Part shown: positions 5,406-45,322 of the stretch, piece after piece
How positions within the stretch are numbered: the first letter of the stretch is position 1
Layout of the letters: each line of letters opens with the position of its first letter
Assembly: GCA_017443025.1 (NCBI GenBank)
Contig: JAFSPG010000001.1
Span: 88,457 to 152,456 of the forward strand
Length of the DNA: 64,000 nucleotides
Direction of reading: 5' to 3'
From: Bacteroidales bacterium
GTDB lineage: Bacteria > Bacteroidota > Bacteroidia > Bacteroidales > UBA932
Notes under the pieces: model-generated
Database searches by the model: none
Seen by the model: the letters and a program-made list of their open reading frames with translations, nothing else
Told to the model about the DNA's origin: nothing
Position numbers and translations under genes: made by a program

Positions 5406-8384
5406 TTAAAATCCTATCTTTCCTTTGCGGCTGTCCCATTTGAAGGTCGCGATGTCGGAGAGCTGGACCTCGTGGGCCTTGGGAGGCTCTGGGAGGGCGC
5501 TTTCGCGGAGGATGACCTGCTGGTAGATGGCGCGCGACATAAGTTTCATTGTTCTTGCGCTGGCGCCGGTGGAGGAGCAAAGAGCCTTGAGATATGCGCG
5601 TATGTGCTTTTCGGCGTCGGGGCTGAAGCTTACTCCGTACTTTTCAAGACACTGGCAGAGAATCTGGAAGAGTTCATCTTGAGTGAAATCCTTGAAGACC
5701 AGCGTATGGTCGAATTCATATACACCGGAATCGTAAAGCTGCTCAGCCAAATTCGCGTTGGGCGCATCAAGTTCGGCCAGAATCAGGGCGCACTCCCCAC
5801 CTACCTCTACGGTCAGTTCCTTGACCTTAAGGCGTATCTGCTCGATAATACGCCCATAGCCGTCGCTGAACTTGGGGTCATCCATATCGATGAAGATGAG
5901 GCCGTTGCAGGCTTTCTTCACCGCTTCCTTTAGCACTTCGTCGCAGTTGTAGTCGGAGACTCCGAATAATCTCTCGCCCCTGATTTGAGTAATGTGGCTG
6001 TTGGAAATCAGGCGCATGCCCCTAAGGATACCTGCCATTATTTCAGCCACGGTACTCTTTCCCGTGCCGCTATTGCCGATGAAGCGCCAGCTCAGGAGGC
6101 CTTTACCGACGTATGGCTCCCCTATCGAATGCAGGTAACGGGCCGACTGTACAAAGTTGTGGATGGCTTTCTTGACTCCGTCTAGCCCGGCAAGTGAATC
6201 CATGCGGGCAAGTGCGGCGTCGATGGCGACATCGTCAAATACGGCATCCTTCAATGATTTATCGACGACGACATCCTCCGGGAGGATGGTGCTGAGGTCT
6301 TCTTTTGTCGGATTAGCGAGCTTGGCAGTCCTGGTGCCAATAGTAGCCATAATCTCATTCTGGATAAGATTGGACATGAAGCGGCCGTTTCCGAAACGAG
6401 GCGACGGTTTGTCGGATTCCTCACGGATGATGGCCCTCATATTCTCAATGGCTCCGTCCGTCATGGTAAAGCCCTGCTTGCGAATCATCAGCTTGCCTAT
6501 TTCCAAAAGCTCATCGCTGGTGTAATCTTCAAAGTTGAAGACATTGGGGAAACGGCTTTCTATGCCCTCGTTACTCTCCAGAAGCTTTTTCATAGGGGCC
6601 GTATATCCGGCCAGGATAACCACCATATCCACATTGTCCTTACCCAGCTCGGTAAGCAGTGAATCCATGACGATATGTCCGAAATCTCTTTCTCCCTCAC
6701 CGACAAGCTGATAAGCCTCGTCGATGAAGAGGATGTTACCACGGGCCCGGGCAAGGAGTTTCCTCATCTTTAATTCAGTCTCACCGATGTACTGCCCCAC
6801 CAGCTTGCTCTTTTCGGTATGGATGACATGGCCGCCAGACAGGATACCCCAGGAGGCGAAAACACGGCCGATGATATCGGCGACGGTTGTTTTGCCGGTT
6901 CCGGGGTTGCCGAGGAAGGCCATGTGCAGACGCGGCATATTGGTTGGCAAGCCCATTTCCATACGACGGCTGGCAAGTTTTATGGCTTCAAGATAGTCCT
7001 TGACTTTTTTCTTGATTGTATCCATTCCGATGAGCTCGTCGAGCTCAGCCATGGCATCACCGCCGCTGTTGCCAAGGGTCGGAATATCCTCTGGCATAAC
7101 CAGCTCCAGCTGATCTTTGGAAGGCGACGGAATACCGCTCAGACGATTGTACATCGCGGGGATGATGGAGTCGTCGAAGAGGCTCTTCACGAGCAGTGAA
7201 TTCTGGAATCCGGGGCCACGGCGGTTGTACTTGTGGAGGATATACATCTCAAGCTTTTGCCGGGCTTCGCCGGAGAGTTTGACATTACTCTCCGAGCAGC
7301 ACCGGTCAACTACACTAAAGAGTTCCTCGGGCTTTAAATCTTCAAAGTATATGGGGTCAGCAAGATGTTGTTTGAGGTCGGGATGGGCCGAGAGAAGGTA
7401 CTCCATTCCATCCGGCTCGCCTACAAGGATAGTAACAGATTTCTTAAAATCGGATTTTTCGGCAAGAGCTTCTACCAGTTCATTGACAATATGCCCCTCC
7501 TGTTCAAGGCCGGGGCTCTTGGGCTGGGTTGAATTCAGATCGTCAACCCCTTTAATCACAAGTACTCCGCCCCGGGCATTTGAAACAGCGATATTAATAC
7601 CGGTTTCGGCTCCCGAAACATACTCTGTAGTGATTTCTTCCCTTTCAATCAGCCCAAGCGATTTGTAAAGCTTGGCCATCAGTTCAAGCGCCTTGGTTTT
7701 TCCGGTGCCCGGATTGCCGATAAAGGCAGTATGCAAAACCGGAGGGTTGGCTTTCAATCCGACATCTGCACGCATCTGACCGACTTTACAGCGGTTTGCT
7801 ACCTCATTCATTCGAGCCTTGAAATTTTCCAATCCACTGCATTCGTTGATAGTTTTCAGCACTTCGTCCGCTGCCTGGAAATCGAATTCAAATGATTCTT
7901 CCCCGTTAAGCGGCCACGGCCCTTCGATGGTAATCTGATGCTCGACAATATTCTCGCCGTCTTTCTGAAGGATGATTTGCAGCGTATCCGTCTCCCTGCG
8001 ACCTATCATGTAGCCTTCGCCCATAAGTTCGGTAGTCAGGAATGGAGCCATATGCAGGCGGTTTCCGTCGCGGAACAAAGAGATGTTGTTCTGATTAAAC
8101 CAGGCCTCCTTCTTATTGCGGCCATTATTAGTCTTGACGATAAGATGAAGTTCGCTTTGCTCCTCGACGTCAGGAATCTCGACATCGATATGGATATACT
8201 GACCTTCGGCCGGAACAAGACTGCTGATTAGGCTCTCTACAAGAAATTCATTGCGGGAATCATTTGAGTCGCAGTATAAACGATAACCTCCTGTGCAAAC
8301 AGAGTTTATTTCCTCCTTACCGCCACCGGCTATAAACTCTTCCAGGATACTCTCAAGATCAGAATGGGTTGGCTTCTTTGTCAT
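5406..8384 (-). CDS. Three-module AAA+ ATPase of CbbX/SpoVK type, copy 1
   Basis: A 992-residue protein with an N-terminal region of about 200 residues, partly beta-rich (IHIDVEIPDVEEQSELHL at 64-81), and three AAA+ modules. Walker A motifs are GNPGTGKT (223-230), GNPGTGKT (492-499) and GNSGTGKS (about 769-776). Only the middle module has a normal Walker B (ILFIDEAYQL, 551-560) and a clear arginine-finger region (ESRFPNVF). Module 1 has VLVIKGVDD and module 3 has LIFIDMDD, both lacking the usual Glu. CbbX/SpoVK relatives remodel partner proteins as hexamers. The C-terminus ends KGKIGF, the same as the paralogue at 42029-45322; over modules 2 and 3 the two look roughly 70-75% identical by eye. 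It is divergent from a small partner (8559) and followed 11 bp later by the membrane Nudix-like gene. The family is clear; the process is unknown. Confidence 0.85.
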   Translation of the reverse strand: MTKKPTHSDLESILEEFIAGGGKEEINSVCTGGYRLYCDSNDSRNEFLVESLISSLVPAEGQYIHIDVEIPDVEEQSELHLIVKTNNGRNKKEAWFNQNNISLFRDGNRLHMAPFLTTELMGEGYMIGRRETDTLQIILQKDGENIVEHQITIEGPWPLNGEESFEFDFQAADEVLKTINECSGLENFKARMNEVANRCKVGQMRADVGLKANPPVLHTAFIGNPGTGKTKALELMAKLYKSLGLIEREEITTEYVSGAETGINIAVSNARGGVLVIKGVDDLNSTQPKSPGLEQEGHIVNELVEALAEKSDFKKSVTILVGEPDGMEYLLSAHPDLKQHLADPIYFEDLKPEELFSVVDRCCSESNVKLSGEARQKLEMYILHKYNRRGPGFQNSLLVKSLFDDSIIPAMYNRLSGIPSPSKDQLELVMPEDIPTLGNSGGDAMAELDELIGMDTIKKKVKDYLEAIKLASRRMEMGLPTNMPRLHMAFLGNPGTGKTTVADIIGRVFASWGILSGGHVIHTEKSKLVGQYIGETELKMRKLLARARGNILFIDEAYQLVGEGERDFGHIVMDSLLTELGKDNVDMVVILAGYTAPMKKLLESNEGIESRFPNVFNFEDYTSDELLEIGKLMIRKQGFTMTDGAIENMRAIIREESDKPSPRFGNGRFMSNLIQNEIMATIGTRTAKLANPTKEDLSTILPEDVVVDKSLKDAVFDDVAIDAALARMDSLAGLDGVKKAIHNFVQSARYLHSIGEPYVGKGLLSWRFIGNSGTGKSTVAEIMAGILRGMRLISNSHITQIRGERLFGVSDYNCDEVLKEAVKKACNGLIFIDMDDPKFSDGYGRIIEQIRLKVKELTVEVGGECALILAELDAPNANLAEQLYDSGVYEFDHTLVFKDFTQDELFQILCQCLEKYGVSFSPDAEKHIRAYLKALCSSTGASARTMKLMSRAIYQQVILRESALPEPPKAHEVQLSDIATFKWDSRKGKIGF

Positions 8385-8558
8385 AAAGGGTGTTATTTAG
8401 CTTGCTGAAAGACAAATATAAATAATATACGCAAGAAAGACATCAATTCGGGTAAAATCTATCCTTTTGACAGAAATATTTATGAATGTTATAGATATGA
8501 ATCCCCAGCGTCTTTATTGAGCAACTTTTCCCGAGTTCATTGAAATAATTCAGTTGTT
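8385..8558. promoter_or_regulatory. Divergent promoter region of AAA+ module copy 1
   Basis: This 174-bp AT-rich gap separates the AAA+ gene (minus) from the small partner (plus). A minus-strand -7 box TATATTTG is at 8420-8413, about 29 bp before the AAA+ start; I see no good -33 match at 19 bp. For the plus strand a TTTTG around 8474 is a possible -33, but the -7 box is weak. Sharing one control region supports joint regulation of the pair. Confidence 0.45.
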
Positions 8559-9038
8559 ATGACAAAATCTTATCAACTTGTGGCCTGGACCGACAAAGGA
8601 CAGGTCAAAATGCTTCCATGTGAAGTAAATGCGCTTATCAGCGAGTCTCAGGCTAAGATTGACCGCTTGATCGACGGTATCCGCTTCGATACATATAACG
8701 AGGTGTCTGACATTCTGGAAGTATGCGGGGCATACGAACAACTCGGAATCAGCCTTCTGAATCTGAGCAAAATCGATGAGGCCTTCCGGCAGTTTGCAAA
8801 AGCGGCCGAATGCTGCTGCACCTGTGGCAACAACTGGGAGGATTTCGAAGACTACGAAAGCCTCTGCCCGCCGCTGCGCGAAGAGTTTTACGCGATGTAC
8901 GACCGATGCAAGAATCTGGTCCGCCAATATCCTCAGCTCCGCCACGCCTGGAACGAAAGCGGCCTCTCGGATTACCTCAGCTGGGTTAAGCAGAAAAATA
9001 GGTGGCTCAAGGCCGAGTACGGCTACAGCGGCTTATAA
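8559..9038 (+). CDS. Small helical partner protein of the AAA+ module, copy 1
   Basis: A 159-residue protein of no family I recognise. It opens with MTKSYQLVAWTDKGQVKM, a short beta-like segment, and continues as mostly amphipathic helices that could form TPR-like hairpins (EVSDILEVCGAYEQLGISLL and IDEAFRQFAKAAECCC). It has a CCCTC cysteine cluster at about residues 86-90 and an acidic patch after it. No signal peptide or membrane segment is visible. A clear paralogue (185 residues, minus strand 39886-40443) sits next to the second AAA+ copy, sharing the same opening, the cysteine cluster and the Trp/Tyr-rich C-terminal half. Conserved pairing with the AAA+ gene suggests an adaptor or substrate for that ATPase; this is inference. 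Confidence 0.8.
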   Translation: MTKSYQLVAWTDKGQVKMLPCEVNALISESQAKIDRLIDGIRFDTYNEVSDILEVCGAYEQLGISLLNLSKIDEAFRQFAKAAECCCTCGNNWEDFEDYESLCPPLREEFYAMYDRCKNLVRQYPQLRHAWNESGLSDYLSWVKQKNRWLKAEYGYSGL

Positions 9039-9055
9039 CTTTGTAAAATAATAGT

Positions 9056-9162
9056 TATCTTTGCGGGCGGACGATTGACCGCGAAAGCCGACTTTGGCTC
9101 CCGAAAAGAGAGGGGACCCACAAAGTGGGGAGGATCGGCGCCGCGGAGCAATCGCCGCCCGC
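9056..9162 (+). promoter_or_regulatory. Promoter and potentially structured leader of the queCDE operon
   Basis: A -7 box TATCTTTG lies at 9056-9063. Downstream, 9063-9162 can fold extensively. GCGGGCGG (9063-9070) pairs with CCGCCCGC (9155-9162) and CGATTG (9072-9077) with CAATCG (9149-9154). Inside are CCGCG/CGCGG, GCCGA/TCGGC, a TCCC/GGGA hairpin and a CCCAC-AAA-GTGGG hairpin, giving a branched shape. If transcription starts about 7 bp after the -7 box, the outermost GC-rich arm is partly outside the RNA, but the inner stems remain. The 3' side ends 11 bases before the queC ATG. I do not recognise a preQ1-I, -II or -III aptamer, so a riboswitch is only a possibility. Confidence 0.5.
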
Positions 9163-9173
9163 AGAACAAATAT

Positions 9174-9815
9174 ATGAAAGGCTTACTTATTTATTCGGGA
9201 GGAATGGACAGCACGGTGCTGCTGTACAAGTACCGCAGCGAGATTGCACTTGCCGTCACCTTTACATATGGTGCACGGCAGGACGAGGCGCAGACCGCCT
9301 GCGCCGAGGCGAACTGCAGGAAGCTCGGCATAGAGCATCTGATCATTCCCCTCGAATTCATCGGGCAGTACTTCCAGAGCAGCATTCTCAAGGGCGGAGC
9401 CGATATTCCCCACGAAGACTACGGCGAAGGCAATATGAAGAGTACGGTGGTACCCTTCCGCAACGGCATCATGCTTTCCGTAGCCGTTGGCCTGGCCGAG
9501 AGCCGCGGGCTCGATACCGTGCTGATAGCCAATCACTCCGGCGACCACTCCATCTACCCCGACTGCCGGCCCGGCTTCATTAAAGCCATCAGTAAAGCGG
9601 CCACGGAAGGAACCTATGAGGGCGTCGTCGTGGCCTCGCCCTTCTGCAATATGACAAAGCGCGAAATAGCCCTCGAAGGCAAGGCCCTCGGCGTGCCCTT
9701 CGAGCAGAGCTATTCCTGCTACGAAGGCCGCCCTAAGCACTGCGGCACCTGCGCAACCTGCCGCGAGCGCAAGGAAGCCCTGCAAGGCTTCGACCCCACT
9801 GAATACGAAGAATAA
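9174..9815 (+). CDS. queC: 7-cyano-7-deazaguanine synthase QueC
   Basis: Makes preQ0 from 7-carboxy-7-deazaguanine and ammonia with ATP, in queuosine tRNA-modification precursor synthesis. The protein of 213 residues starts at the ATG at 9174; an in-frame extension further upstream would lie inside the leader and resembles no QueC. The PP-loop SGGMDST is at residues 8-14. The C-terminal zinc site has four cysteines in CYEGRPKHCGTCATC. Length and motifs are normal for the family. It is followed 5 bp later by queD and then queE, so the three consecutive precursor genes form one operon. Cytoplasmic. Confidence 0.95.
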   Translation: MKGLLIYSGGMDSTVLLYKYRSEIALAVTFTYGARQDEAQTACAEANCRKLGIEHLIIPLEFIGQYFQSSILKGGADIPHEDYGEGNMKSTVVPFRNGIMLSVAVGLAESRGLDTVLIANHSGDHSIYPDCRPGFIKAISKAATEGTYEGVVVASPFCNMTKREIALEGKALGVPFEQSYSCYEGRPKHCGTCATCRERKEALQGFDPTEYEE

Positions 9816-9820
9816 AAGAT

Positions 9821-10153
9821 ATGTACTACGTTAGCAAAAGACTCGAGATATCCTCGGCCCACAGCCTCAACCTCTCCTACGAGAGCAAATGCGAAGCCCT
9901 CCACGGGCACAACTGGATTGTAGTCGTGCACTGCAAATCCAAGACGCTCAACGCCGACGGAATGGTATCCGACTTCACCACAATCAAGAAGAAAATCTCC
10001 GGAGCCCTCGACCACCGCAACCTCAACGAAATCTTCGACTTCAATCCCACCGCAGAAAACATCGCCAAGTGGATATGCGACCAGATTGAGAACTGCTACA
10101 AAGTCGAAATCTGGGAATCGGAAAGCAACAAAGCCGCCTACGAAAAAGACTGA
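9821..10153 (+). CDS. queD: 6-carboxy-5,6,7,8-tetrahydropterin synthase QueD
   Basis: Converts 7,8-dihydroneopterin triphosphate to 6-carboxytetrahydropterin, the step before QueE. The 110-residue protein has the zinc histidines of the PTPS fold: ISSAHSL near residue 14 and LHGHNW near residues 29-34. It also has the DHRNLNE motif near residue 67 and a C-terminal IEVWESE-like catalytic Glu region (VEIWESESN). It lies 5 bp after queC and one base before queE, consistent with translational coupling. Short length and domain content match bacterial QueD. Confidence 0.93.
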   Translation: MYYVSKRLEISSAHSLNLSYESKCEALHGHNWIVVVHCKSKTLNADGMVSDFTTIKKKISGALDHRNLNEIFDFNPTAENIAKWICDQIENCYKVEIWESESNKAAYEKD

Positions 10154-10154
10154 A

Positions 10155-10724
10155 ATGAAGTCTTATCTGGTTAACGAGATATTCTACTCTTTCCAGGGCG
10201 AAGGTTTCTGGACCGGAATTCCGGCCCTCTTTCTTCGCCTTGCTCTCTGCAACCTCAAATGCCCCTTCTGCGACACTGATTTCTCTGCCTCGACGCCGAT
10301 GACGGCAGAAGAGATATTGTCTTCGCTGGGGAAATCATCCAAAGACTGCCGTACCGTCGTCCTGACCGGCGGAGAACCGGCACTACAGACAGACGAAGCC
10401 TTGATTAAAGTCCTCCACAAAGCAGGATACACCATCCATATCGAGACAAACGGCACCAAAGCCCTTCCGGAAGGAATCGACTGGATTACCCTCAGCCCCA
10501 AGTCCGACTGGCTGAAAGACGCCGAGCCGGTCATAACCGAGGCTGACGAGTTGAAACTCGTTTACACCGGCCAGAATCCTGAGCGTTGGCTCAGCTTCAA
10601 CGCAAAACATTTCTTCCTGCAGCCCTGCTCGCAGAAAAACACATCCGAGGTGCTCGCTTATATTCTTGAACACCCCGGATGGAGATTAAGTCTTCAGACT
10701 CACAAGTATTTCGGATTCCGCTGA
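10155..10724 (+). CDS. queE: 7-carboxy-7-deazaguanine synthase QueE
   Basis: A radical SAM enzyme that contracts 6-carboxytetrahydropterin to 7-carboxy-7-deazaguanine. The best start is the ATG at 10155, one base after the queD stop, giving 189 residues beginning MKSYLVNEIFYSFQGEG. The cluster motif is CNLKCPFC (CX3CX2C), near residue 33, and the glycine-rich SAM motif is VLTGGEP. The order queC-queD-queE gives the enzymes from dihydroneopterin triphosphate to preQ0. The stop is 3 bp from the convergent lipoprotein gene. Confidence 0.94.
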   Translation: MKSYLVNEIFYSFQGEGFWTGIPALFLRLALCNLKCPFCDTDFSASTPMTAEEILSSLGKSSKDCRTVVLTGGEPALQTDEALIKVLHKAGYTIHIETNGTKALPEGIDWITLSPKSDWLKDAEPVITEADELKLVYTGQNPERWLSFNAKHFFLQPCSQKNTSEVLAYILEHPGWRLSLQTHKYFGFR

Positions 10725-10727
10725 TTC

Positions 10728-11489
10728 CTATTTTCCAACGGCCTTGAGCCTGCTCCTCAAATAATTGGAGAAATCCGTTCCGCCGGCATCGTCGGAAGCG
10801 GCAAGCCATTCGGAAGAAAGATTGTAATCGCCCATCACATAGAAAGCGACAGCGACATTGTATGCGGCGCAGGCGCGGCGCAGACCGCTTTTTCCCTTGG
10901 CAAGAGCCATCCAGAGCTTTATAGCCTCGTGCCACTTCATGTTATAAGCGGCCTTGGCGGGGGCGTCCCATTCTGAAGAATCGTAGTAATACAGGACGAT
11001 GGTTTCAGTTGCCCAGGTGGAAAGGAAGGAATCGAAGTCGAGGGTAGGATTGGCAGTGTAAACCTTGACGGTATCGGTCTTTGCCATTGAATCGTAAACG
11101 CAGAGGCGGGCAGCCTGCGACTTGGCAGAGCCGTCGAGAAGGAAGATGACATCTTTGTCGGTATCCATCACAAGGTTTACGAGAGTATCACGGCTCGCAT
11201 AATCGGCGGCCGGATTGACCGACAGATTATAAAGCCCTACGACGGACTCTCCGCCAAAATAATCCTTTTCGAGAGATGCCGCAAACTCTTCGGCCATTTC
11301 ACGGGCGCGGGCGGTGTCCTTGGGTGCAGCCACATAGACTATGCCCATCGATTTACCGGAAAGGTTGTAACCGGACGGAGATGGCCTCCTCAGCTGAAGA
11401 TCCATCGAAAAGAACTGCGGAGAGCAGGATACTGCCAGGGCAAACAGGCCAAGGCAAAGCATTACCGGATAAAGCAAATTCTTCTTCAT
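10728..11489 (-). CDS. Predicted lipoprotein, possibly DUF6340-like
   Basis: A 253-residue secreted protein. The start chosen is the ATG at 11489, because a GGAGG sequence lies a few bases upstream and the resulting N-terminus MKKNLLYPVMLCLGLFALAV followed by SC is a good lipoprotein signal with the lipobox cysteine near residue 22; the longer reading adds ten unlikely residues and overlaps rimO. The mature part has alternating strands and helices and a helical, TPR-like C-terminal region (AAYNVAVAFYVMGDYNLSS). It probably sits at the outer or inner membrane facing the periplasm. It starts 8 bp after the rimO stop and is probably co-transcribed. Function unknown; the DUF6340 link is from memory and not certain. 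Confidence 0.7.
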   Translation of the reverse strand: MKKNLLYPVMLCLGLFALAVSCSPQFFSMDLQLRRPSPSGYNLSGKSMGIVYVAAPKDTARAREMAEEFAASLEKDYFGGESVVGLYNLSVNPAADYASRDTLVNLVMDTDKDVIFLLDGSAKSQAARLCVYDSMAKTDTVKVYTANPTLDFDSFLSTWATETIVLYYYDSSEWDAPAKAAYNMKWHEAIKLWMALAKGKSGLRRACAAYNVAVAFYVMGDYNLSSEWLAASDDAGGTDFSNYLRSRLKAVGK

Positions 11490-11497
11490 ATTTCCTC

Positions 11498-12820: not shown

Positions 12821-13258
12821 TTATTTGGCTTCTGCTTCGGCCTTACGGTCTTCGTCGGTCATGAAATCGAGCGAAGCGTGTTTCTTGAGAAGGTTGTACC
12901 AGAGAACGACCTTGCGCATATGGGACACGTAAAAGCGATTGGCATCGTAATCCGGAACGGCCTTGGCAAAAAGCTCGCGGAGTTCATCGTCGGAGGCCTT
13001 GGCGGAAGGGGCGTCCTTTTCGCCGAGGGCGGCTTTGAGCTTGAGGAATACCTCGCTGAGCTTCATCTCTCCTTCGTCGGTATAAATGGAGATGTCTTCG
13101 AGGGAAGTAATCTTGCTGCGGACGTTAAGGCAGGTCCTTGAATCGTCGGCCAGATTACGGGCGATGGCGCCGTTGCGGGCCTGAGCAATATATTCGAAAA
13201 GACCTCCGTTACCTGAAACGGAAAGAATTTTTGTGAGATCGGTTTTCTTTGTAGCCAT
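12821..13258 (-). CDS. DUF5606 family protein
   Basis: A 145-residue cytoplasmic protein starting MATKKTDLTKILSVSGNGG. The start at 13258 is preferred to one 27 bases upstream because it gives the conserved opening of this Bacteroidetes-restricted family. The protein has a small beta-rich N-terminal half (LSVSGNGGLFEYIAQARNGA, SKITSLEDISIYTDEGE) and a charged helical tail ending in Glu/Ala/Lys repeats. No catalytic motif is evident and the function is not known. It lies between coaE and rimO on the same strand, 13 bp after coaE. Confidence 0.8.
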   Translation of the reverse strand: MATKKTDLTKILSVSGNGGLFEYIAQARNGAIARNLADDSRTCLNVRSKITSLEDISIYTDEGEMKLSEVFLKLKAALGEKDAPSAKASDDELRELFAKAVPDYDANRFYVSHMRKVVLWYNLLKKHASLDFMTDEDRKAEAEAK

Positions 13259-13271
13259 AGTTATGATGTTT

Positions 13272-37876: not shown

Positions 37877-38176
37877 TTCAGGGAGCAGCTCAGGAACTCC
37901 CACCCCGAAGAAGAAGAGAAGGAACAACCGAAAGCGGAGCTCCGGACGCCCCCTGCCCCGAAGATGGTGAGAAGAAAAAAGGAGTCGAGGGCGGCCGACC
38001 ACTCATCGGTCTGGCTGTCCAGGGATGCTCAGCGGAAGGCAAAGCTACTCACCCTATGGATGGATGCCGAAGGGATGGAACGTCCAGGTTCCATCGGTGA
38101 TTTGCTTGAGGAAGCCCTGGATGTGCTGATCGAGAGTAAATACCCCAAGGCGAAGAAATATGTCGAGATGAAGTAG
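37868..38176 (+). pseudogene. Truncated mobilisation-type (DUF3408-like) protein
   Basis: An open frame of 102 codons with only a TTG at its left end; the first internal ATG would give about 71 residues. The N-terminal half is acidic and Pro-rich and the middle is basic (KMVRRKKESRAADH). The C-terminal half (AQRKAKLLTLWMDAEGMERP, LLEEALDVLIESKYPKAKKY) looks like the ribbon-helix-helix proteins found in Bacteroides mobilisation regions (DUF3408). The missing start and the adjacent helix-turn-helix stub suggest a remnant of an integrated element. It could still be expressed from the internal ATG. Confidence 0.45.
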
Positions 38177-38179
38177 CAC

Positions 38180-38224
38180 TTGTTTTTCTTCGTATTTTAA
38201 TTTATATTTGCGGTAAATATTACC
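38180..38224 (+). promoter_or_regulatory. Promoter and possible AbiEi operator of the abiE pair
   Basis: TTG (38180-38182), 20 bp, then TATATTTG (38203-38210). Directly after the -7 box is the inverted repeat GGTAA-ATA-TTACC (38212-38224), which covers the expected start of transcription and ends 3 bp before the ATG. AbiEi antitoxins repress their own promoter by binding inverted repeats, so this is a natural candidate operator. The transcript would have almost no leader. Confidence 0.55.
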
Positions 38225-38227
38225 ACA

Positions 38228-38986
38228 ATGGCAACAAAGATAAAGAAAATACTCGATTTAGTTCCCAAGGATTCCCTGCTGTTTTCATCCTGGATGGCCA
38301 ATCAGGGTTTGGACCGAAAGGAACAGACGCTGTATGTCCGTAGCGGATGGCTTGAACGGGTGGCTCAAGGGGTGTATAAGATAGCCGGCAGTACGCCAAC
38401 ACTCTATGGCGCTGTCGCTTCATATAACAACCAGCTGGGCAAGAGTTGCCATGTCGGAGCTTCGTCCGCACTGGATCTGCGCGGCTTCTCCCACTTTGTT
38501 TCCATGGGAAAGCCCCAGGCTTACCTGTTCACGGCCAAAGAGTCCCGTCTGCCCGGATGGCTTCCTAAAAGCGAATGGGAAATGACGGTGAAGTATTTCA
38601 CATCCTCCGTCTTTGGCGCCGAAACAGGACTTGAGCTATATGATTACAACGGTGCGCAACTGCTCATTTCCTCCCCGGAACGGGCTTTCATGGAGTGCCT
38701 GCTCTTATCCCCCGAACAGTTTTCCCTCATGGACAGTTACTATGTGATGGAGATGTTGACAACGCTCCGTCCGTCACTTGTCCAGCAACTTTTGGAAGAG
38801 TGCTCTTCCGTCAAGGTCAAGCGCCTGTTCCTGTATATGGCAGAAAAAGCCGGCCACAGCTGGTTCAGAGCCCTGGATTCTTCAAAGATCAATCTTGGCA
38901 GCGGCGTGAGGAATATCTCCGCTACTGGACGATTCATAAGTAAATATCAGATGATTATACCTTCAGACTTGGCAGACTATGAATAG
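38228..38986 (+). CDS. AbiEi-family antitoxin (type IV toxin-antitoxin)
   Basis: A 252-residue cytoplasmic protein. It has an N-terminal winged-helix domain (LLFSSWMANQGLDRKEQTLY, VRSGWLERVAQGVYKIAG, residues about 14-55) and a larger C-terminal AbiEi domain (SSPERAFMECLLLSPEQFS near residue 155). AbiEi antitoxins neutralise AbiEii without binding it stably and repress the operon. The next gene overlaps its stop by 8 bases, as is typical. The gene is intact although the toxin frame is broken. Confidence 0.86.
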   Translation: MATKIKKILDLVPKDSLLFSSWMANQGLDRKEQTLYVRSGWLERVAQGVYKIAGSTPTLYGAVASYNNQLGKSCHVGASSALDLRGFSHFVSMGKPQAYLFTAKESRLPGWLPKSEWEMTVKYFTSSVFGAETGLELYDYNGAQLLISSPERAFMECLLLSPEQFSLMDSYYVMEMLTTLRPSLVQQLLEECSSVKVKRLFLYMAEKAGHSWFRALDSSKINLGSGVRNISATGRFISKYQMIIPSDLADYE

Positions 38987-39883
38987 AGAATATGCAGAGA
39001 AAGTGGAGGTCCTCCTGAGGCTCCTCCCCATCGTGATGGAAGAGAAGGTTTTTGCCGTCCATGGAGGTTCGGCTATCAACCTCTTTGTCAGGAACTTACC
39101 TCGTTATTCGGTTGACATTGACCTTACATACATACCCCTGGAAGGCCGGGAGGAAAGCCTGGAGCACATCAACGCTCATCTTATGAGTATCGCGGGTAAG
39201 GCAAGACGCGCTTTCCCCGGGATGCACATTGTACCAAAACTCAATACTTGCAAACTCCTCTGCGAATATCAGCGCAAGCAGATAAAAGTGGAAGTGAACC
39301 AAACCAAGCGTGGGATTGTTGGCGGTGATGTGCTGACAGTGCCTCTGTGCAAGAAAGCGCAGGATGAATTCGGCCTGTATTGTGAAGCCGATATCGTGCC
39401 CATGACTCTGCTTTACGGCGGGAAGATTGCAGCGGCGCTTTCAAGACAACACCACGAGACCTCTTCGATGTCAAGTACATGGAGTACCCCTTTGAAAAGA
39501 CACGGGAGGGCTTGCTGTTCTGCCTTCTGGGCAGCGACCGTCCTTTGTACGAATCATTTGCTCCCAACCTTATTGACCAGAAGGATGCACTTGCCAATCA
39601 GTTTGAAGGGATGACAGACACGCCCTTCTCGTATGAGGAATATGAGGAGGCACGTGCAAAACTTATTGCCGATGTAAATGCCATGATGACGGCAGAAGAC
39701 AAAGATTTCCTTGTGAGTTTCGAGATGGGTGAACCGGACTGGGACAGTTTTGATTTCCCTTATTTCAAAGACTATCCTTCCGTGCAATGGAAGCTCAATA
39801 ACCTTCTGAAGCTGAAAAGACAAAATCCATTGAAGCTACGCGAAGAAGCCGAAAGACTCCGAAAAATCTTTCGGCTTGATTAA
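38979..39883 (+). pseudogene. AbiEii-family nucleotidyltransferase toxin, frameshifted
   Basis: The nucleotidyltransferase toxin of the AbiE pair, read in two frames. Frame 1 (from 38979) carries VHGGSAINLFVRNLPRYSVD and then IDLTYIP, the G[GS]xxxxL and DxD metal-binding core, to about residue 158 (YGGKIAAALSRQH). Frame 2 (to 39883) continues DLFDVKYMEYPFEKTREGLL through the C-terminal helical domain. The frames join if one C is restored at the CACCAC around 39452-39455; QHPRDLFD would then be regained. The full protein would be about 300 residues, the normal length. One missing base could be a real inactivating mutation or a sequencing or assembly error. The gene converges with the partner gene at 39886, 2 bp apart. 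Confidence 0.82.
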
Positions 39884-39885
39884 GT

Positions 39886-40443
39886 CTATCCCCGGCGACG
39901 GCGATAGACTTCGTTCCGACCGAAGTTCAACGACTTCGTGAATTCCCAGTTCTCTTCCCGTTCCCGAACCTCGTCAGCCCTGTACATCGCCAGGGTCTGG
40001 TCAACCTCGGTAACGCAGCTGAGCGTCCGGTCAAGGCCGGTTTCGGCCCACGAATACTTGAGCCTCGGATACTTCCGGACCAGATCCATGCACTGGCAGA
40101 ACATCGCGAAGAACCTTCCCCGCAGGGGGCGGCAGAGAGAAGCACCGAACTCGTCGTCGTAGGTCCAGTTGTTGTAGGAGTTACAGCAGCAACCGGCCGC
40201 CTGGGCAAACTGGAAGAACGCATCCTCATACCTTCCCAGATCCAGAAGCTCTCGTCCGAACTTCTCGTAAGCGCTGCTCAATTGCAGGAGGTCCGAGACT
40301 TCGAAGCGGGTCCCGTACCGGACCTGGTCGCTGATTCTGTCGATCTCGCCGATAGACTGATGCATGAACGCGGTAACCTCGCTGGGAATCATTCTGACCT
40401 GACCCTTCTCGGTCCAGGCCACAAGTTGATAAGCTTTTGCCAT
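39886..40443 (-). CDS. Small helical partner protein of the AAA+ module, copy 2
   Basis: A 185-residue paralogue of the protein at 8559-9038, starting MAKAYQLVAWTEKGQVRM at the ATG at 40443; a longer frame upstream does not share the family start. It keeps the helical middle (EVSDLLQLSSAYEKFGRELL, YEDAFFQFAQAAGCCC) with the cysteine cluster and the Tyr/Trp-rich C-terminal half (LVRKYPRLKYSWAETGLD). It adds a basic tail of about 26 residues ending in Arg repeats. A dispersed repeat with promoter-like boxes (40595-40679) lies upstream. It is in the minus-strand group that opens with the 48-codon ORF and phosphoesterase, divergent from AAA+ copy 2. Function unknown; probably works with the AAA+ protein. 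Confidence 0.8.
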   Translation of the reverse strand: MAKAYQLVAWTEKGQVRMIPSEVTAFMHQSIGEIDRISDQVRYGTRFEVSDLLQLSSAYEKFGRELLDLGRYEDAFFQFAQAAGCCCNSYNNWTYDDEFGASLCRPLRGRFFAMFCQCMDLVRKYPRLKYSWAETGLDRTLSCVTEVDQTLAMYRADEVREREENWEFTKSLNFGRNEVYRRRRG

Positions 40444-40594
40444 AACAGTAACGTATTTCAATGAACTTCCCGGCCACCCGGTCCTTCGCATCAGGGTGCA
40501 GTGCTCCCTGGGAGTGGACCTTCGTCCGGGCTTGTTCAGTTACATGTTATGGTCGGAAAAGATTTTCAGGTGCTCATAAAAACCGCTTCGGTTT

Positions 40595-40679
40595 GCAAAT
40601 TTACGGGCCAGCCGAGAGAAATACAAATTTATTTGCATTTCCGAGGCGCCGCCGTAAATGCCGGCGCAGCCGGAACTTA
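40595..40679. repeat. MITE-like repeat, copy A
   Basis: An 85-bp element that matches 48892-48977 over its full length with scattered mismatches. Inverted ends ATTTACGG (about 40599) and CCGTAAAT (about 40652) flank a hairpin (AAATACAAATTTATTTGCATTT). Read on the minus strand it contains two TAAATTTG boxes, so it could act as a moving promoter for the small partner gene 150 bp downstream. Copy B sits upstream of another minus-strand gene in the same way. No transposase is linked. Confidence 0.65.
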
Positions 40680-40739
40680 CGATATAAAGACGGAGCTGCA
40701 AGCGAAATCTATCACACCCAGGGACAAATTTCTTTTCCG

Positions 40740-41723
40740 TTATCCAGCACTCTCATCCACGTAGAGAGCCGCCGGATAAAAGACTGAGATGTGGTATCTG
40801 CTGCCAGTTCTCAGATTGGTTACATAGATGTGAGATTCGTCAACATCGACTATTTTCCATTCTATATGAAAGTTCCTTTCGATGCCCTTCACAAATTCTT
40901 TATTAGCCTCACAGAGCTCGTGATAAACCGGATGCTCTTTCAAAGAACCACAGAACTCCAATTCTGCTAGAGCTAATGAGAAATCCTGTCTGATTTTTTG
41001 TTCAACTTCTCTCATTTTGTCTGACTCCACGCTGATGTGGAAACGAATCGGCAGCCGGATTAATTGCTTCTGGTTGTCGCAGCAGGCGACGTTGACCATT
41101 TCCGTGTGGCGAGGGCCGAAATCCATGTGGGCAACCCTTTCCCGCGTCTCGTGAATGTGGCCGCCGATAAGGAAGCGGACATTGCGGGAAGCAACGGCCT
41201 CACGGAGTTCTTTGCTGCCAAGGTCACGCATATCCCTGTCGGAAAAACCGATATAGTTGCAGTCGTACGGGACTGTATGGGTAATGAGTATGTCCACGTT
41301 CTGGGGAATCCCGGAATACTTTTCCCTCAGGAAATCGGAATCATCCGAGGAGAACGCCTTGTTAACAAAAGGCGTCGGCACCCAGGGCGTGCCATACATC
41401 TTTATACCATAAAACTCGAATTCGCTGTCGCACAGATACACCAGCTTCTTCCCGGCCGATGGAGCAAACTCTTTCAACAACTCCTCATTATGCGCCTCAA
41501 TCCAGTGGTCATGATTCCCGGCAACCAGAACGACACGCCGGCATGCAATCTTATCCACCCAGGGAAGAAAGACATCACGAAACCACGCTCCCTGGGCATC
41601 CGGTTTTATATCCAGTTCACCCGGGAAGATGTCTCCGCCAATGAAAACCAGACTTGCAGATTTCATCTCGGGAAGATTCCCGTGAAGGTCGGCAACTGCC
41701 GATATTGAGACGTCCCTAGTCAT
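40740..41723 (-). CDS. Calcineurin-like phosphoesterase
   Basis: A 327-residue cytoplasmic metallophosphoesterase without signal peptide. The motifs are in order: AVADLHGN (residues 10-17), FIGGDIF, VAGNHDHW, ITHTVPYD and GGHIHET. An unassigned C-terminal domain of about 100 residues follows (IRQDFSLALAELEFCGSLKE, FVKGIERNFHIEWKIVDVDE). Relatives act on many phosphodiester or phosphomonoester substrates, so the substrate is open. Its start overlaps the stop of the 48-codon ORF at 41716-41862 by 8 bases. It lies between that ORF and the small partner gene on the same strand, divergent from AAA+ copy 2. It has no counterpart at copy 1. Confidence 0.87.
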   Translation of the reverse strand: MTRDVSISAVADLHGNLPEMKSASLVFIGGDIFPGELDIKPDAQGAWFRDVFLPWVDKIACRRVVLVAGNHDHWIEAHNEELLKEFAPSAGKKLVYLCDSEFEFYGIKMYGTPWVPTPFVNKAFSSDDSDFLREKYSGIPQNVDILITHTVPYDCNYIGFSDRDMRDLGSKELREAVASRNVRFLIGGHIHETRERVAHMDFGPRHTEMVNVACCDNQKQLIRLPIRFHISVESDKMREVEQKIRQDFSLALAELEFCGSLKEHPVYHELCEANKEFVKGIERNFHIEWKIVDVDESHIYVTNLRTGSRYHISVFYPAALYVDESAG

Positions 41724-41862
41724 TAGTATTGCCTTGCCTTTCTCTAAAACTGTCTTTCCTTATTATCAGGCGGATAATCTGCCTGAACAGGGACATGTGC
41801 TCGGAGTATCCGAGCATGTCCTTTTCTTCATTTTTGGTGGAGGGGTTTTTCTTTATTGCCAT
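41716..41862 (-). CDS. Short basic protein overlapping the phosphoesterase gene
   Basis: A 48-residue frame that I found by translating the minus strand: it opens MAIKKNPSTKNEEKDMLGYS and ends RQGNTND, with a basic helical middle (LFRQIIRLIIRKDSF). The phosphoesterase ATG lies inside its last codons (8-base overlap), which is a usual sign of translational coupling. A 31-base palindrome (GGACATG...CATGTCC, 41791-41821) lies in its coding part. Function unknown. No close counterpart is visible at AAA+ copy 1. Confidence 0.55.
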   Translation of the reverse strand: MAIKKNPSTKNEEKDMLGYSEHMSLFRQIIRLIIRKDSFRERQGNTND

Positions 41863-42028
41863 GTGAAATCGGGTTTGCAATAAAGACGTCTCCGGCCAGG
41901 AAATCTATCATCATTTTGAAAATATTTCTATCACGTCGATAGATTTTCGAACAACCTCCATCTTTCTTAAGGAAGAAATTATAAGGAATATTTGTTAAAT
42001 TTGTAAGTCACAGCAAAAATAACACTTT

Positions 42029-45000
42029 ATGGCGAAAAAGACCACTCTGGCCGAAATGCTTGAAAATCAGCCTGACATTTTAAAGGATGCTTTCAAACTT
42101 ATCGATGAACAAGGGCAACTTGGCGTCGTTGAACGTAAAGCCGTCGATGAAACCCTCCAGGCCTTACTGAATGATGACGGGCTCATGGAAATTTGCCGGG
42201 CCTATATGGATTGGAAATATCCCGATTCAACCGGGAAGTCAGAAGACGAACGCAACCAGGAAGACATTCTTGAGTTCGGTGCCGACTTGGACGATGACGA
42301 TGATGACGAAGAGGACGATGCCGAGTTCAATCGCCTGCTGAACCTCTTCATGAAAGGCTCATCTAAAGACGATAATGAAGATGAGGATTCCAGCTCTGAT
42401 TATGAGTTTCTCTGCGACGTGGATGAGAAACCGACCGAGTATCTGGTTCAGGAATGCATCAAGGAGATAGAACCCGAAAGAGGATTGTATGTCCACGTCG
42501 ATCTGGTCATCCCCGATACCGAAGAAGAGGATGAGCTTCGCGTAGAGGTGACCACTCTCAGGGGAACAGAAATGATTCAGGGCTGGTTCGACAAGAACAG
42601 CATTCCGCTTTACCGTGACGGTGACCACATGCATCTGAAGCCGACCCTTCTAACCGACCTTTTGGGCAAAGACTACAAGCTGGACAAAGACGAGCAGGAC
42701 CAGCTGGTAATGATTCTCTATAAGAACGAAAAGGAGCATTACTCCCGCAAGATTCCTATCAAGGGCCCCTGGCCGTCGGCCACTAAACCGTACGATTCAT
42801 GTATGAAAGCGTTCAAAGCAAATGAAGACATTCCCGAGCAGATGGCGATTATCAACGAGCGTCCCGGCTGGCAGAATTTCAAGGCCAGAATGGACGAAAT
42901 GGTCTCCCGCTGCAAGGTGGGCGCACTCCGGAAAGAGGCCGGGCTGACCAGCAACACTCCTACGCTGCATACCATCATCATGGGAAATCCGGGCACCGGA
43001 AAGTCCAGTTGCATACCGTTCATGACCGGCCTTTATAAGACGCTCGGCCTGCTGGACACCGATGAAATCTGTACTACCCGTGTTTCTAAGCTTGCCGCAT
43101 CAACCGTGAACGGCGAATACGAAAATATGATGTCCGTTATTGAGAAAGCGCAGGGCGGCACGCTTGTCTTTGAGAATGCCCATGAGCTTTACCGTACGGA
43201 GAAAAACAACAACTACGATACCGAGCAGCGTATCATTCGCGCCTTGATTGACGGGCTGGAAAACGTCAAGAAATATCCCAGGTGGATGCTGGTTCTGGTC
43301 GGTGAACCCGACGGCCTGGAGTCCGTCCTTGCCTCCAATCCGGACCTGAAGAAGTATATTGGTACGCCCATTGTCATGGAGGATTTCAATCCTCAGGAAC
43401 TGTCCTGGATTGCCCAGGCCTGCTGCAATGGTCGCAAACTCAAACTCACTCCTGACGCTCAGGCAAAACTGGAGATGTACATTCTCCATAAGTACAACCA
43501 CCGCGGCGACGGCTTCCAGAATGCCTGGATGGTGCAGGGGCTCCTTGACGAGCACATCATTCCTGCTATGTACCGCCGCCTGCAGGGCATTACGAACCCG
43601 ACCAAAGAGCAGTTGGAGACGGTCGAAGCCCAGGATATCCCGATGGTAAGCAGCTCCTCCGGCACTGAAATGGCGGCGCTCGATGAGCTTATCGGCCTAG
43701 GGAAAATCAAGACCAAAGTCAAAGACTATCTGAACGCCGTGAAACTCGCCGGCCGCCGTATGGAACAGGGCCTGCCCACGAATATGCCCCGCCTGCACAT
43801 GGCCTTCCTGGGCAACCCGGGAACCGGTAAGACCACCGTGGCCGAAATTATCGGCAAAGTGTTCGCTTCCTGGGGCATCCTTTCCGGCGGCCGCGTCATC
43901 CGCACCGAGAAGAGCCAGATGGTGGGACAGTGGATTGGTGAGACCGAGCAGAAGATGCGTACCCTCCTTGAGCGCGCCCACGGGAACATCCTTTTCATCG
44001 ATGAGGCCTATCAACTTGTGGAAGGCGGCGAGAAGGATTATGGCCGCATCGTGATGAATTCGCTGCTCACGGAGCTGGGCAAGGAGAATTCCGATATGGT
44101 GGTTATCCTGGCCGGTTATACTGCTCCGATGAAGCAGCTTCTGGAGAGCAACGAAGGTATTGAGAGCCGATTCCCGAATGTATTCAACTTCGAGGACTAC
44201 ACCACCGACGAGCTGGTGGAGATTGGCAAGCTGATGATCAAGAAGCAGGGCTTCACCCTCACCGAAGGAGCCGAAAAGAACATGCGTGCCATCATCGAGG
44301 AGGAAGCTGAGAAACCGTCACCCCGCTTCGGCAATGGCCGGTTCGTGTCCAATCTCTTGCAAAACGAGATTCTGGCAACGCTGGGAGCCCGTACCGCAAA
44401 ACTGGAGAACCCCTCCAAGGAAGAGCTTAGCACCATCCTTCCGGAAGATGTAGTCATCGGCAAGGCTCAAAAAGATGTGGTATTTGACGATGTGGCCATT
44501 GATGCCGCCCTGGCCCGGCTGGATGCCCTGGCCGGACTCACCGGCGTAAAGGCCGCCATTCACAACTTCGTCAAATCTGCCCGCTACCTGCATTCCATCG
44601 GCGAGCCGTATGTGGGCAAAGGCCTTCTGAGTTGGCGCTTCATAGGAAAAAGCGGCACCGGAAAGAGTACCGTAGCGGAGATTATGGCCTGCATCCTCAA
44701 GGGAATGCGCCTGATTGCCAACAGCCACATCACCGAAGTGAAGGGCGAACGCATCCTTGGTGCTTACGACGAAAGCCAGGAAGTGCTTCGGGAAGCCGTC
44801 AAGAAGTCTTGCAACGGCCTCATCTTCATTGACGTGGACGACTCCAAGTTCAACGATGACCGCGCCCGCTACGGCCGTATCGTAGAGCAGATGCTCCTCA
44901 AGCTCAAAGAGATGACCGTGGAGGCCGGTGGCGAATGCGCGCTGATTCTGGCTGAGCTTGACGCCCCTAACGTGGACGTGGCAGAGCAGCTTTCCGAGGC

Positions 45001-45322
45001 AGGTATTTATGAGTTTGACCACACCCTCATCTTCAAAGACTTCACCGCCGACGAACTCTACGACATTCTCTGCTACTGCCTGAAGAAGTTCGAAGTGGCC
45101 TTCACGTCCGAGGCTGAGAATCATATCCGTAGCTACCTGACCACCTTGAGTTCTTCCATCTACGCCAATGCACGCACGATGAAACTCATGGCCCGTACCA
45201 TACACCAGCAGGTCATCCTTCGTGAAGCCGGTCTGTCCGAGCGCCCGGCGGCACATCAGGTTGAGCTGGCCGACGTAGAGACGTTCAAGTGGGACGGCAA
45301 GAAAGGTAAGATTGGTTTTTGA
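42029..45322 (+). CDS. Three-module AAA+ ATPase of CbbX/SpoVK type, copy 2
   Basis: A 1097-residue paralogue of the protein at 5406-8384. It has an extra N-terminal stretch with a very acidic run (DLDDDDDDEEDD, about residues 86-97), then the shared beta-rich segment (YVHVDLVIPDTEEEDELRVE) and three AAA+ modules. Walker A sequences are GNPGTGKS (318-325), GNPGTGKT (595-602) and GKSGTGKS (about 872-879). Walker B is intact only in module 2 (ILFIDEAYQL); module 1 reads TLVFENAHE and module 3 LIFIDVDD. The C-terminus ends KGKIGF. By eye the two proteins share about three quarters of residues over modules 2 and 3 and less at the N-terminus. A TAAATTTG box at 41996-42003 is a likely -7 element. 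It probably remodels an unknown partner; the divergent small protein is the first candidate. Confidence 0.86.
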   Translation: MAKKTTLAEMLENQPDILKDAFKLIDEQGQLGVVERKAVDETLQALLNDDGLMEICRAYMDWKYPDSTGKSEDERNQEDILEFGADLDDDDDDEEDDAEFNRLLNLFMKGSSKDDNEDEDSSSDYEFLCDVDEKPTEYLVQECIKEIEPERGLYVHVDLVIPDTEEEDELRVEVTTLRGTEMIQGWFDKNSIPLYRDGDHMHLKPTLLTDLLGKDYKLDKDEQDQLVMILYKNEKEHYSRKIPIKGPWPSATKPYDSCMKAFKANEDIPEQMAIINERPGWQNFKARMDEMVSRCKVGALRKEAGLTSNTPTLHTIIMGNPGTGKSSCIPFMTGLYKTLGLLDTDEICTTRVSKLAASTVNGEYENMMSVIEKAQGGTLVFENAHELYRTEKNNNYDTEQRIIRALIDGLENVKKYPRWMLVLVGEPDGLESVLASNPDLKKYIGTPIVMEDFNPQELSWIAQACCNGRKLKLTPDAQAKLEMYILHKYNHRGDGFQNAWMVQGLLDEHIIPAMYRRLQGITNPTKEQLETVEAQDIPMVSSSSGTEMAALDELIGLGKIKTKVKDYLNAVKLAGRRMEQGLPTNMPRLHMAFLGNPGTGKTTVAEIIGKVFASWGILSGGRVIRTEKSQMVGQWIGETEQKMRTLLERAHGNILFIDEAYQLVEGGEKDYGRIVMNSLLTELGKENSDMVVILAGYTAPMKQLLESNEGIESRFPNVFNFEDYTTDELVEIGKLMIKKQGFTLTEGAEKNMRAIIEEEAEKPSPRFGNGRFVSNLLQNEILATLGARTAKLENPSKEELSTILPEDVVIGKAQKDVVFDDVAIDAALARLDALAGLTGVKAAIHNFVKSARYLHSIGEPYVGKGLLSWRFIGKSGTGKSTVAEIMACILKGMRLIANSHITEVKGERILGAYDESQEVLREAVKKSCNGLIFIDVDDSKFNDDRARYGRIVEQMLLKLKEMTVEAGGECALILAELDAPNVDVAEQLSEAGIYEFDHTLIFKDFTADELYDILCYCLKKFEVAFTSEAENHIRSYLTTLSSSIYANARTMKLMARTIHQQVILREAGLSERPAAHQVELADVETFKWDGKKGKIGF

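What the first reader, a model, noticed from the sequence alone, without database searches (positions are those of the whole stretch)
5406..45322. A duplicated two-gene module: a three-module AAA+ ATPase with a small cysteine-containing partner, flanking the core block
A 992- and a 1097-residue AAA+ protein (5406-8384, 42029-45322) are paralogues. Each lies divergent from a paralogous small helical protein (8559-9038, 39886-40443) that begins with the same YQLVAWT[DE]KGQV segment and has a CCC cluster. Independent duplication of both parts, with the same divergent geometry, is strong evidence that they work together. I know of no named system with this composition. CbbX/SpoVK relatives remodel protein partners, so an ATPase plus adaptor or substrate is the simplest reading. 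Both copies lie in accessory regions with defence-type genes (AbiE, Nudix-like membrane proteins, ATPases), which makes a conflict role possible.
Basis: partly seen in the sequence, partly recalled or inferred. Interest (0 to 1): 0.82.

Follow-up and report, generated by a model that had tools for sequence, protein, structure and literature searches.

The report
Leader-RNA-controlled small protein beside swappable cassettes
The small gene in this gut-bacterial window belongs to a family that carries its own folded RNA leader, which no RNA library searched here lists, and the big ATPase next to it is one of several exchangeable neighbours.

Summary
Both gene pairs exist: AAA+ copies 60% identical, small proteins 50%. 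"Two genes that work as a pair" is only half right. (1) Close AAA+ homologues mostly sit divergently beside a small gene (5 of 6 evaluable loci), but the small gene mostly lacks the AAA+: 8 of 39 loci have it, 7 of the 25 with 7.5 kb or more of leader-side DNA. (2) The near-constant partner is a structured 5' leader RNA, present in 29 of 31 loci found without it: three hairpins and a stem over or beside the start codon (swapped-flank test 0 of 20,000), absent from Rfam 15. Of 22 model hits at E<=1e-6 in 398 genomes, 21 precede a small-family gene; one is at a contig end. 24 of 25 long leaders hold a start-stop minimal ORF. (3) In three genomes of one genus, leader-small-lpd is kept while the divergent cassette differs. 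The AAA+ is a SpoVK/CbbX-clade protein with one complete module of three. Conflict role, and small protein as common controller of the cassettes, are inferences.

The parts
5406..8384 (-). AAA+ copy 1, 992 aa: variable N-terminal domain and three SpoVK/CbbX-type modules
42029..45322 (+). AAA+ copy 2, 1097 aa
8559..9038 (+). small protein copy 1 (TPR-like, 159 aa); its leader RNA core is missing (only the GTTCATTGAAATA end remains)
39886..40443 (-). small protein copy 2 (TPR-like, 185 aa)
40452..40530 (-). core of the structured leader RNA: three hairpins, then GTTCATTGAAATA
40539..40552 (-). 5' strand of the closing stem P1 (CCATAACATGTAAC)
40440..40452 (-). 3' strand of P1, which contains the ATG of small copy 2 (GTTACTGTTATGG)
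40566..40577 (-). minimal upstream ORF ATG AGC ACC TGA
40596..40603 (-). Bacteroides-type -7 box (TAnnTTTG) of the leader transcript (consensus recalled)
40706..40714 (-). TGATAGATT box, here about 100 nt upstream of the -7 box (34-35 nt in 13 other leaders)
41926..41943 (.). palindrome TTCTATCACGTCGATAGA in the promoter of AAA+ copy 2; the only perfect TCTATCnnnnnGATAGA in the whole genome
8458..8474 (.). one-mismatch version of the palindrome between AAA+ copy 1 and small copy 1
40740..41723 (-). metallophosphoesterase; its C-terminal part is also found next to the small gene in G113 (L008)
1236..2357 (-). ATPase_2/AAA_14 protein, recurrent cassette gene (CL4): 5 of 39 loci
2800..5394 (-). 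864-aa membrane protein directly downstream of AAA+ copy 1, Nudix-like by eye only (no Pfam Nudix match)

Best explanation
The near-constant unit is a cis-regulatory leader RNA plus the small TPR-like protein that it precedes. SHOWN by sequence: a promoter-like box, a start-stop minimal ORF, a ~80-nt core of three hairpins, and a closing stem whose 3' side overlaps or abuts the start codon of the downstream gene, conserved with compensatory changes. INFERRED: in the closed state the stem hides the start codon and the small protein is not made; an event in the leader (a change in how ribosomes use the minimal ORF, or binding of the small protein or a ligand to the hairpin core) opens it. No terminator was found in the copy-2 leader, so control is probably translational. 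The AAA+ gene is one of several exchangeable accessory modules on the divergent, leader side of this unit and in part shares a GATAGA-type operator with it. The AAA+ is most likely a dedicated remodelling chaperone of the SpoVK/CbbX/EccA clade, with one complete ATPase module, two degenerate ones and a fast-evolving N-terminal recognition domain. The small protein most likely acts as a regulator or adaptor that different divergent modules can use. Rough probabilities: leader is a real cis-regulatory RNA 0.85; AAA+ is an exchangeable cassette beside a constant RNA+small unit 0.85; small protein functionally serves the divergent cassettes 0.3; small protein is a physical adaptor of this AAA+ 0.15.
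For: Leader RNA: present in 29 of 31 loci found by protein searches (27, two window copies, G188, G273; missing in W1 and, apart from its third hairpin, L014). RNAalifold gives the three hairpins unaided; in hairpin 1 one pair is A-U in 21 and G-C in 8 of 29. 95.9% of cells paired, slid controls 21-59%. P1: mean cognate duplex -17.6 vs -12.5 (sd 0.76) with swapped flanks, 0 of 20,000. Tied to the small gene: 21 of 22 hits at E<=1e-6 in 398 family genomes (13 matched by contig and position to known small loci, 8 by protein HMM); one hit is at a contig end. Minimal ORF: 24 of 25 long leaders, 17 distinct sequences, stops TGA 18, TAA 4, TAG 2, chance about 0.011 per leader. Exchangeable cassettes: G273, G226, G252 share leader-small-lpd at 90-95% DNA identity with different divergent genes. 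All 31 hits of seven recurrent families in 39 loci lie upstream on the opposite strand. Shared box: 6 of 8 AAA+ promoters and 14 of 30 leaders vs 37 of 331 ORFs. AAA+: SpoVK/CbbX/EccA models match; Walker B with DE only in module 2, 8 of 8; N-terminal domain 33% mean identity vs 83% for module 2.
Against: No expression, probing or genetic data. W1 and L014 keep a small gene without the full core. Four short leaders (L029-L032) lack the minimal ORF, L027/L028 lack the box, L036 lacks the ORF. In seven loci the core is 94-335 nt from the small gene and another ORF comes first (94-95 aa in five; interrupted by N in L020, 13 codons in L034), so there the occluded start is not that of the small gene. 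Most hairpin pairs hardly vary; pairs with double change are within shuffles (2; 193/500). In single loci swapped flanks sometimes pair as well (up to 8 of 22). The composite box TGATAGATTnnnnCTTGC of other leaders is absent from the window (0 matches with 2 mismatches). The seven cassette families were picked from these neighbourhoods; in the unbiased clustering, of seven clusters with three or more loci (leader-overlapping or leader-adjacent ORFs CL5 and CL9 left out) five are upstream, one downstream, one mixed. One upstream family is capsule CpsB, not defence. Nothing shows that the small protein touches any cassette product.
Confidence: 0.5

Rival explanations
1. One reading: AAA+ plus small protein is a dedicated two-gene machine, the small protein being its adaptor or substrate.
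For: Small gene beside the AAA+ in 5 of 6 evaluable loci found by the AAA+; correlated distances; shared box.
Against: 31 of 39 small loci have no AAA+ in the DNA held (many contigs are short, but 18 of 25 with 7.5 kb or more also lack it); 4 of 26 genomes of the small-protein scan hold a close AAA+; cassette swapped beside a constant block.
Confidence: 0.15
2. Passive hotspot: RNA+small is a self-contained regulated gene with its own job, and the divergent side is merely a favoured place for accessory genes, with no functional link.
For: Neighbours are very diverse: AAA+, ATPase_2, sigma-C39, Cas13b, caspase, CpsB; the G273-G226 homology ends right at the leader promoter.
Against: Box in 6 of 8 AAA+ promoters; the same few families recur, divergent.
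Confidence: 0.35
3. Autoregulation: the hairpin core is the binding site of the small protein itself (as in ribosomal-protein leaders), and the minimal ORF only sets basal translation.
For: 21 of 21 evaluable strong RNA hits precede this one protein family, unlike metabolite riboswitches, which usually precede several gene kinds (recalled).
Against: No known RNA-binding domain found; TPR-like proteins typically bind proteins (recalled); in seven loci another ORF comes first.
Confidence: 0.3
4. Type III toxin-antitoxin-like: the RNA is an inhibitor of a toxic small protein.
For: RNA directly upstream of a small protein, defence-like neighbours.
Against: No tandem repeats in the aligned RNA; no terminator found between RNA and gene (window copy only); no toxin family match; two small genes lack the full RNA.
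Confidence: 0.04
5. The element works as folded DNA, for instance a recombination site for cassette exchange.
For: Cassette homology breaks next to the leader in G273/G226; inverted repeats.
Against: Promoter-like box, minimal ORF and start-codon overlap fit RNA; nine G-U/U-G cells of the transcribed strand in the counted helices. Integrase genes were not searched for.
Confidence: 0.06

Closest known systems
SpoVK / CbbX / EccA clade of AAA+ chaperones
   Same: Three stretches each match TIGR02881, TIGR02880 and TIGR03922; module 2 has Walker A, Walker B DE, the GY sensor-1 signature and an ESRFPN arginine segment; clade features as read in passages of PMC10659427.
   Different: Three modules in one chain, two of them degenerate; own N-terminal domain; below the curated cut-offs for SpoVK, CbbX and EccA.
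cis-regulatory leader RNAs that occlude the start codon; leader-ORF systems (recalled)
   Same: Structured 5' leader, start codon within or next to a closing stem, short upstream ORF.
   Different: No Rfam 15 family matches the window copy; tied to a single protein family; minimal ORF of one or two codons after the ATG, with a peptide that is not conserved.
Defence islands and hotspots with exchangeable modules
   Same: Neighbours include AbiE (Pfam), Cas13b (NCBIfam), caspase (Pfam) and HicB-like (by eye) genes; cassettes differ beside one constant block.
   Different: The constant element is a leader-controlled small protein gene; CpsB neighbours in five loci are not defence genes.

Membership tests
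SpoVK/CbbX/EccA clade | GY signature at sensor-1 (PMC10659427, passages) | tested here: met
   Module 2, 8 of 8 proteins; module 1 lacks it in 8 of 8, module 3 in 7 of 7 visible
SpoVK/CbbX/EccA clade | curated score of one named member (SpoVK, CbbX or EccA) | tested here: not met
   391/393 vs 422.95, 318/335 vs 459.25, 286/315 vs 466.65 bits: clade relative, none of the three
SpoVK/CbbX/EccA clade | hexameric ATP-driven remodelling of a dedicated client | not testable with these tools
TPR proteins | clear TPR match | tested here: inconclusive
   Only weak matches, TPR_14 in 7 of 27 members, best E 0.0031, none for P0004; one helix pair aligned to designed CTPR. 'TPR-like' only
Known Rfam RNA family | gathering score in the window, or E up to 5 for 40300-40900 | tested here: not met
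   only a tRNA; nothing
Riboswitch (metabolite) | conserved aptamer plus ligand | not testable with these tools
   Conserved core exists; no ligand test
Riboswitch (metabolite) | in front of several metabolic gene kinds (usual, not universal; recalled) | tested here: not met
   21 of 21 evaluable strong hits precede the small family
Type III toxin-antitoxin | tandem RNA repeats and terminator before the toxin gene (recalled) | tested here: not met
   single three-hairpin unit; no terminator-like site between leader and gene in the window
IetA or other listed anti-phage ATPase | full-length family match | tested here: not met
   only partial AAA-domain matches; IetA/IteA 31-39 bits

The most novel reading that the evidence does not exclude
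The leader RNA with its start-stop minimal ORF is a translation-state sensor (for instance of phage-imposed translation change) that switches on a common TPR-like adaptor, and the divergent cassettes, the triple AAA+ being one, are interchangeable effectors that plug into this common trigger.
Probability: 0.15. Interest if true: 0.88.

Novelty: new variant of a known kind. Interest (0 to 1): 0.6.

Why it matters
It gives a testable new leader RNA family in one Bacteroidales family known here from metagenome assemblies, with an unusually small upstream ORF kept in 24 of 25 long leaders, and a natural exchange site where the RNA and small gene stay and the effector-like genes change. If the RNA is a sensor shared by different conflict modules, it would be a rare case of a common RNA-controlled trigger for exchangeable effectors; if not, it is still an orphan regulatory RNA tied to one orphan protein family.

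Tried and rejected
Rejected: AAA+ and small as an obligate pair. Rejected: recent duplication inside this genome. Rejected: conserved CCC cluster. Rejected: ORF 40461-40787 (+) as a gene; it lies over the leader on the other strand and its likeness in L033/L035 is the conserved leader DNA. Rejected: leader as an invertible promoter; a search for inverted 12-mers in eight leaders found them only in L016 and L018, and P1 pairing explains these. Set behind: nested long-range fold of the core; RNAalifold and the A-U to G-C change favour three local hairpins, though the nested fold wins in single sequences and could be an alternative state. The G138 hit is by eye a LytTR regulator, dropped. R1 hits above E 1e-6 were not counted: nine such loci (L124, L141-L148) hold no small-family protein in the DNA held, nor does L169 (2.6e-6); the G018 hit (0.003) lies near its distant AAA+ gene but not before a small gene. 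Led nowhere: plasmids, phages, viral contigs (no relatives; the viral scan matched 5 stretches, none confirmed); RNA model on 393 genomes of the order, own genome only at E<=1e-5; composite promoter pattern in the window, no match; PDB profile, only TPR-like matches. PHROGs was not searched. Literature: five answered searches; only the listed top papers and the starts of their abstracts were seen, and none of these concerns this RNA, this protein or a triple SpoVK-like protein beside it; passages were read in PMC11090510 and PMC10659427; no paper was read whole.
Full report
Observation. The four genes are at the stated places. AAA+ copies are 60% identical, small proteins 50%; the genome (1.66 Mb, 19 contigs) holds two of each. 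Copy 1 is head-to-head with 174 bp between; copy 2 has a metallophosphoesterase gene between. The copies are not a local duplication: AAA+ copy 2 is 80% identical to the copy in another genus (G113) and 61% to copy 1.

AAA+ anatomy. Three stretches of each protein match the SpoVK, CbbX and EccA models, below each curated cut-off. In an alignment of eight proteins all three Walker A motifs are kept. Walker B with DE is found only in module 2 (8 of 8); the GY sensor-1 signature and the ESRFPN segment likewise, with module 3 of L021 cut before that point. Mean pairwise identity of the seven full-length proteins is 0.33 in the N-terminal 180 residues, 0.53 in module 1, 0.83 in module 2 and 0.74 in module 3. 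This suggests one working motor module with a fast-changing recognition part. Characterised members of this clade are described as dedicated chaperones (PMC10659427, abstract and passages).

Small protein. No Pfam, NCBIfam or PADLOC match for either window copy; weak TPR matches in some homologues and a profile match to a designed TPR protein. One scan of the 84,980-species collection gave 27 loci, all in assemblies titled Bacteroidales, Bacteroidia or Bacteroidaceae, some titles naming rumen or other forestomach. That scan used two peptide patterns and missed the G188/G273 type, so it is a lower bound. No relatives in plasmids, phages or viral contigs.

Does it go with the AAA+? Of the 27 loci, 4 have a close AAA+ (L014, L015, L021, L023), and in the 26 genomes no further close AAA+ was found (six others hold distant relatives, at 30-42% over parts of the chain, none on a contig with a small gene). 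With all loci known at the end, found by protein, AAA+ or RNA searches, 8 of 39 have it (W1, W2, G113, L014, L021, L023, G188, G273); of the 25 loci with at least 7.5 kb on the leader side, 7. In the other direction, the family search with AAA+ copy 2 (398 genomes) found eight genomes at E<=1e-60: close relatives in G000 (two), G113, G188, G273 with a small gene beside them, G294 without one nearby (its small gene is on another contig), G312 cut by the contig end; and two distant ones (G018, G234) without a small gene in the stretch held.

The leader RNA. Comparing upstream DNA showed that about 155 nt before the small gene are 81% identical between window copy 2 and L033, whose proteins are about 30% identical, and that in L033 this block lies 310 nt further upstream. 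In seven loci (L013, L020-L022, L033-L035) the core lies 94-335 nt before the small gene instead of about 21-27; another ORF comes first, 94-95 aa in five of them, interrupted by N in L020 and only 13 codons in L034. The core is hairpin GGRC-GAWG-GYCC, hairpin CAGGG...CCCTG, hairpin CCGG-N4-CCGG, then GTTC[AT]TTGAAATA, with exceptions. RNAalifold finds the three hairpins on its own; in hairpin 1 the third pair is A-U in 21 and G-C in 8 of 29 sequences. On the named structure 95.9% of cells are paired, slid versions 21-59%; cells with double change 9 against 2.2 in shuffles (0/500), but pairs with double change only 2 (193/500), because most positions hardly vary. The closing stem P1 varies in sequence while pairing is kept: cognate flanks -17.6 kcal/mol on average, swapped flanks -12.5 (sd 0.76), none of 20,000 permutations as good; for some single loci foreign flanks do as well (up to 8 of 22). 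In many loci, window copy 2 included, P1 contains the start codon of the small gene. The window leader folds with z -3.57, 0 of 200 shuffles as good. No Rfam 15 family matches.

Association of RNA and gene. Of 31 small loci found without the RNA (27, two window copies, G188, G273), 29 have it. Window copy 1 has lost the core and L014 keeps only the third hairpin; in both the AAA+ starts about 175 bp away. Model R1 on 398 genomes of the family gave 22 hits at E<=1e-6 in 20 genomes. So 21 of 21 evaluable. Weaker hits look like chance: none of ten examined has a small gene. In 393 genomes drawn from the order only the own genome has it at E<=1e-5.

Minimal ORF. Of 31 leaders examined (G252, G265, G294, G362, G319, G348 and the second G154 leader not included), 25 have a -7 box (TAnnTTTG; consensus recalled) at least 55 nt before the core; 24 of these 25 have, 25-29 nt after the box start (26 in 20 of them), ATG, one or two further codons and a stop; L036 does not. 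There are 17 distinct versions with all three stop codons; the chance in shuffled leaders is about 0.011 each, though the leaders are related. The peptide itself is not conserved. Two leaders have no box and four are short; these six were not counted.

Shared box. GATAGA or TCTATC lies within 110 nt upstream of the -7 box in 14 of 30 leaders, in 13 of them with GATAGA at -34 or -35; window copy 2 has it only at -110, and the composite pattern of other leaders has no match in the window. It is within 150 nt of the AAA+ start in 6 of 8 loci (background 37 of 331 ORFs, 150 nt, these included); where both genes share one short intergenic stretch, as in G188, it is one and the same site. In W2, L014 and L021 the AAA+ promoter has the palindrome TCTATCnnnnnGATAGA; L020 and L022 have it upstream of the leader without an AAA+ in view. 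The perfect palindrome occurs once in the whole genome, nine places with one mismatch or less against two for the control. This is the best evidence for shared control of AAA+ and small gene.

Exchange at one site. In G273 and G226 (same genus) the block leader-small-lpd is 94.8% identical over 2.07 kb and lies between the same two core stretches (a glycosyltransferase-like gene and a secA-like gene by eye; 96.5 and 97.2% identical), the block being inverted between them; G252 shares the block at 90-91% and the glycosyltransferase side, its other side being a contig end. The divergent side differs: AAA+, a 789-aa protein and an SH3-membrane protein in G273; SH3-membrane protein, caspase and a CHASE2-like membrane protein (by eye) in G226; on the contig that probably continues G252, an 846-aa protein, KDO-type genes (by eye), a 643-aa membrane protein and the SH3-membrane protein. 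The G226-G273 homology starts about 71 nt before the core, at the -7 box.

Neighbours. In 39 loci, hits of AAA+ (8), ATPase_2 (5), CpsB-like (5), sigma-C39 (4), SH3-membrane (4), CL6 (3) and CL11 (2), 31 in all, lie upstream on the opposite strand and none downstream, with 275 kb upstream and 240 kb downstream held within 10 kb. The list was chosen from these neighbourhoods; in the unbiased clustering, of seven clusters with three or more loci (small family and leader ORFs CL5, CL9 left out) five are upstream, one is downstream and one mixed. L018 has Cas13b (8e-155). AbiEi/AbiEii near copy 2 are confirmed by Pfam but lie downstream of the small gene.

Conclusion. The near-constant unit is RNA leader plus small protein; the AAA+ is one of the modules that come and go beside it, with partly shared control. 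What the small protein does is not shown.

Noticed in passing
window 45334-45570 (+): Remnant of an accessory clpP starting 12 nt after AAA+ copy 2: two stretches match residues 1-36 and 187-222 of a ClpP in L018 at 92%, the middle is missing; a full ClpP is elsewhere in the genome (C3), 76% identical to the L018 protein.
   Followed up: partly
L018:2761-9720 (-): Cas13b with a ClpP paralogue, an ATPase_2 protein and a small membrane protein on the divergent side of a leader-small unit.
   Followed up: partly
window 38979-39883 (+): AbiEii-like gene appears split into two overlapping frames; only the first matches Pfam AbiEii.
   Followed up: no
L013, L021, L022, L033, L035 directly after the leader core: A 94-95 aa ORF of two related types sits between the leader RNA and the small gene; no Pfam match for the L013 one; a 13-codon remnant in L034.
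   Followed up: partly
L014:5717-6751 (-); also L012, L016, L023: Fusion of an ECF-type sigma factor with a C39-peptidase-like domain as a recurrent neighbour.
   Followed up: partly
L012:7278-8792 (-); also L014, L091, L160, L162: SH3 plus membrane protein with a C-terminal part that by eye resembles ADP-ribosyltransferases (not tested).
   Followed up: no
window 9075-10724 (+): queC/queD/queE-like genes (by eye) directly downstream of small copy 1.
   Followed up: no
L043-L050: Distant AAA+ relatives (38-42% over the middle module, 30% over a longer stretch; open frames of about 1100 aa) in six genomes of the small-protein set, none on a contig with the small gene.
   Followed up: no
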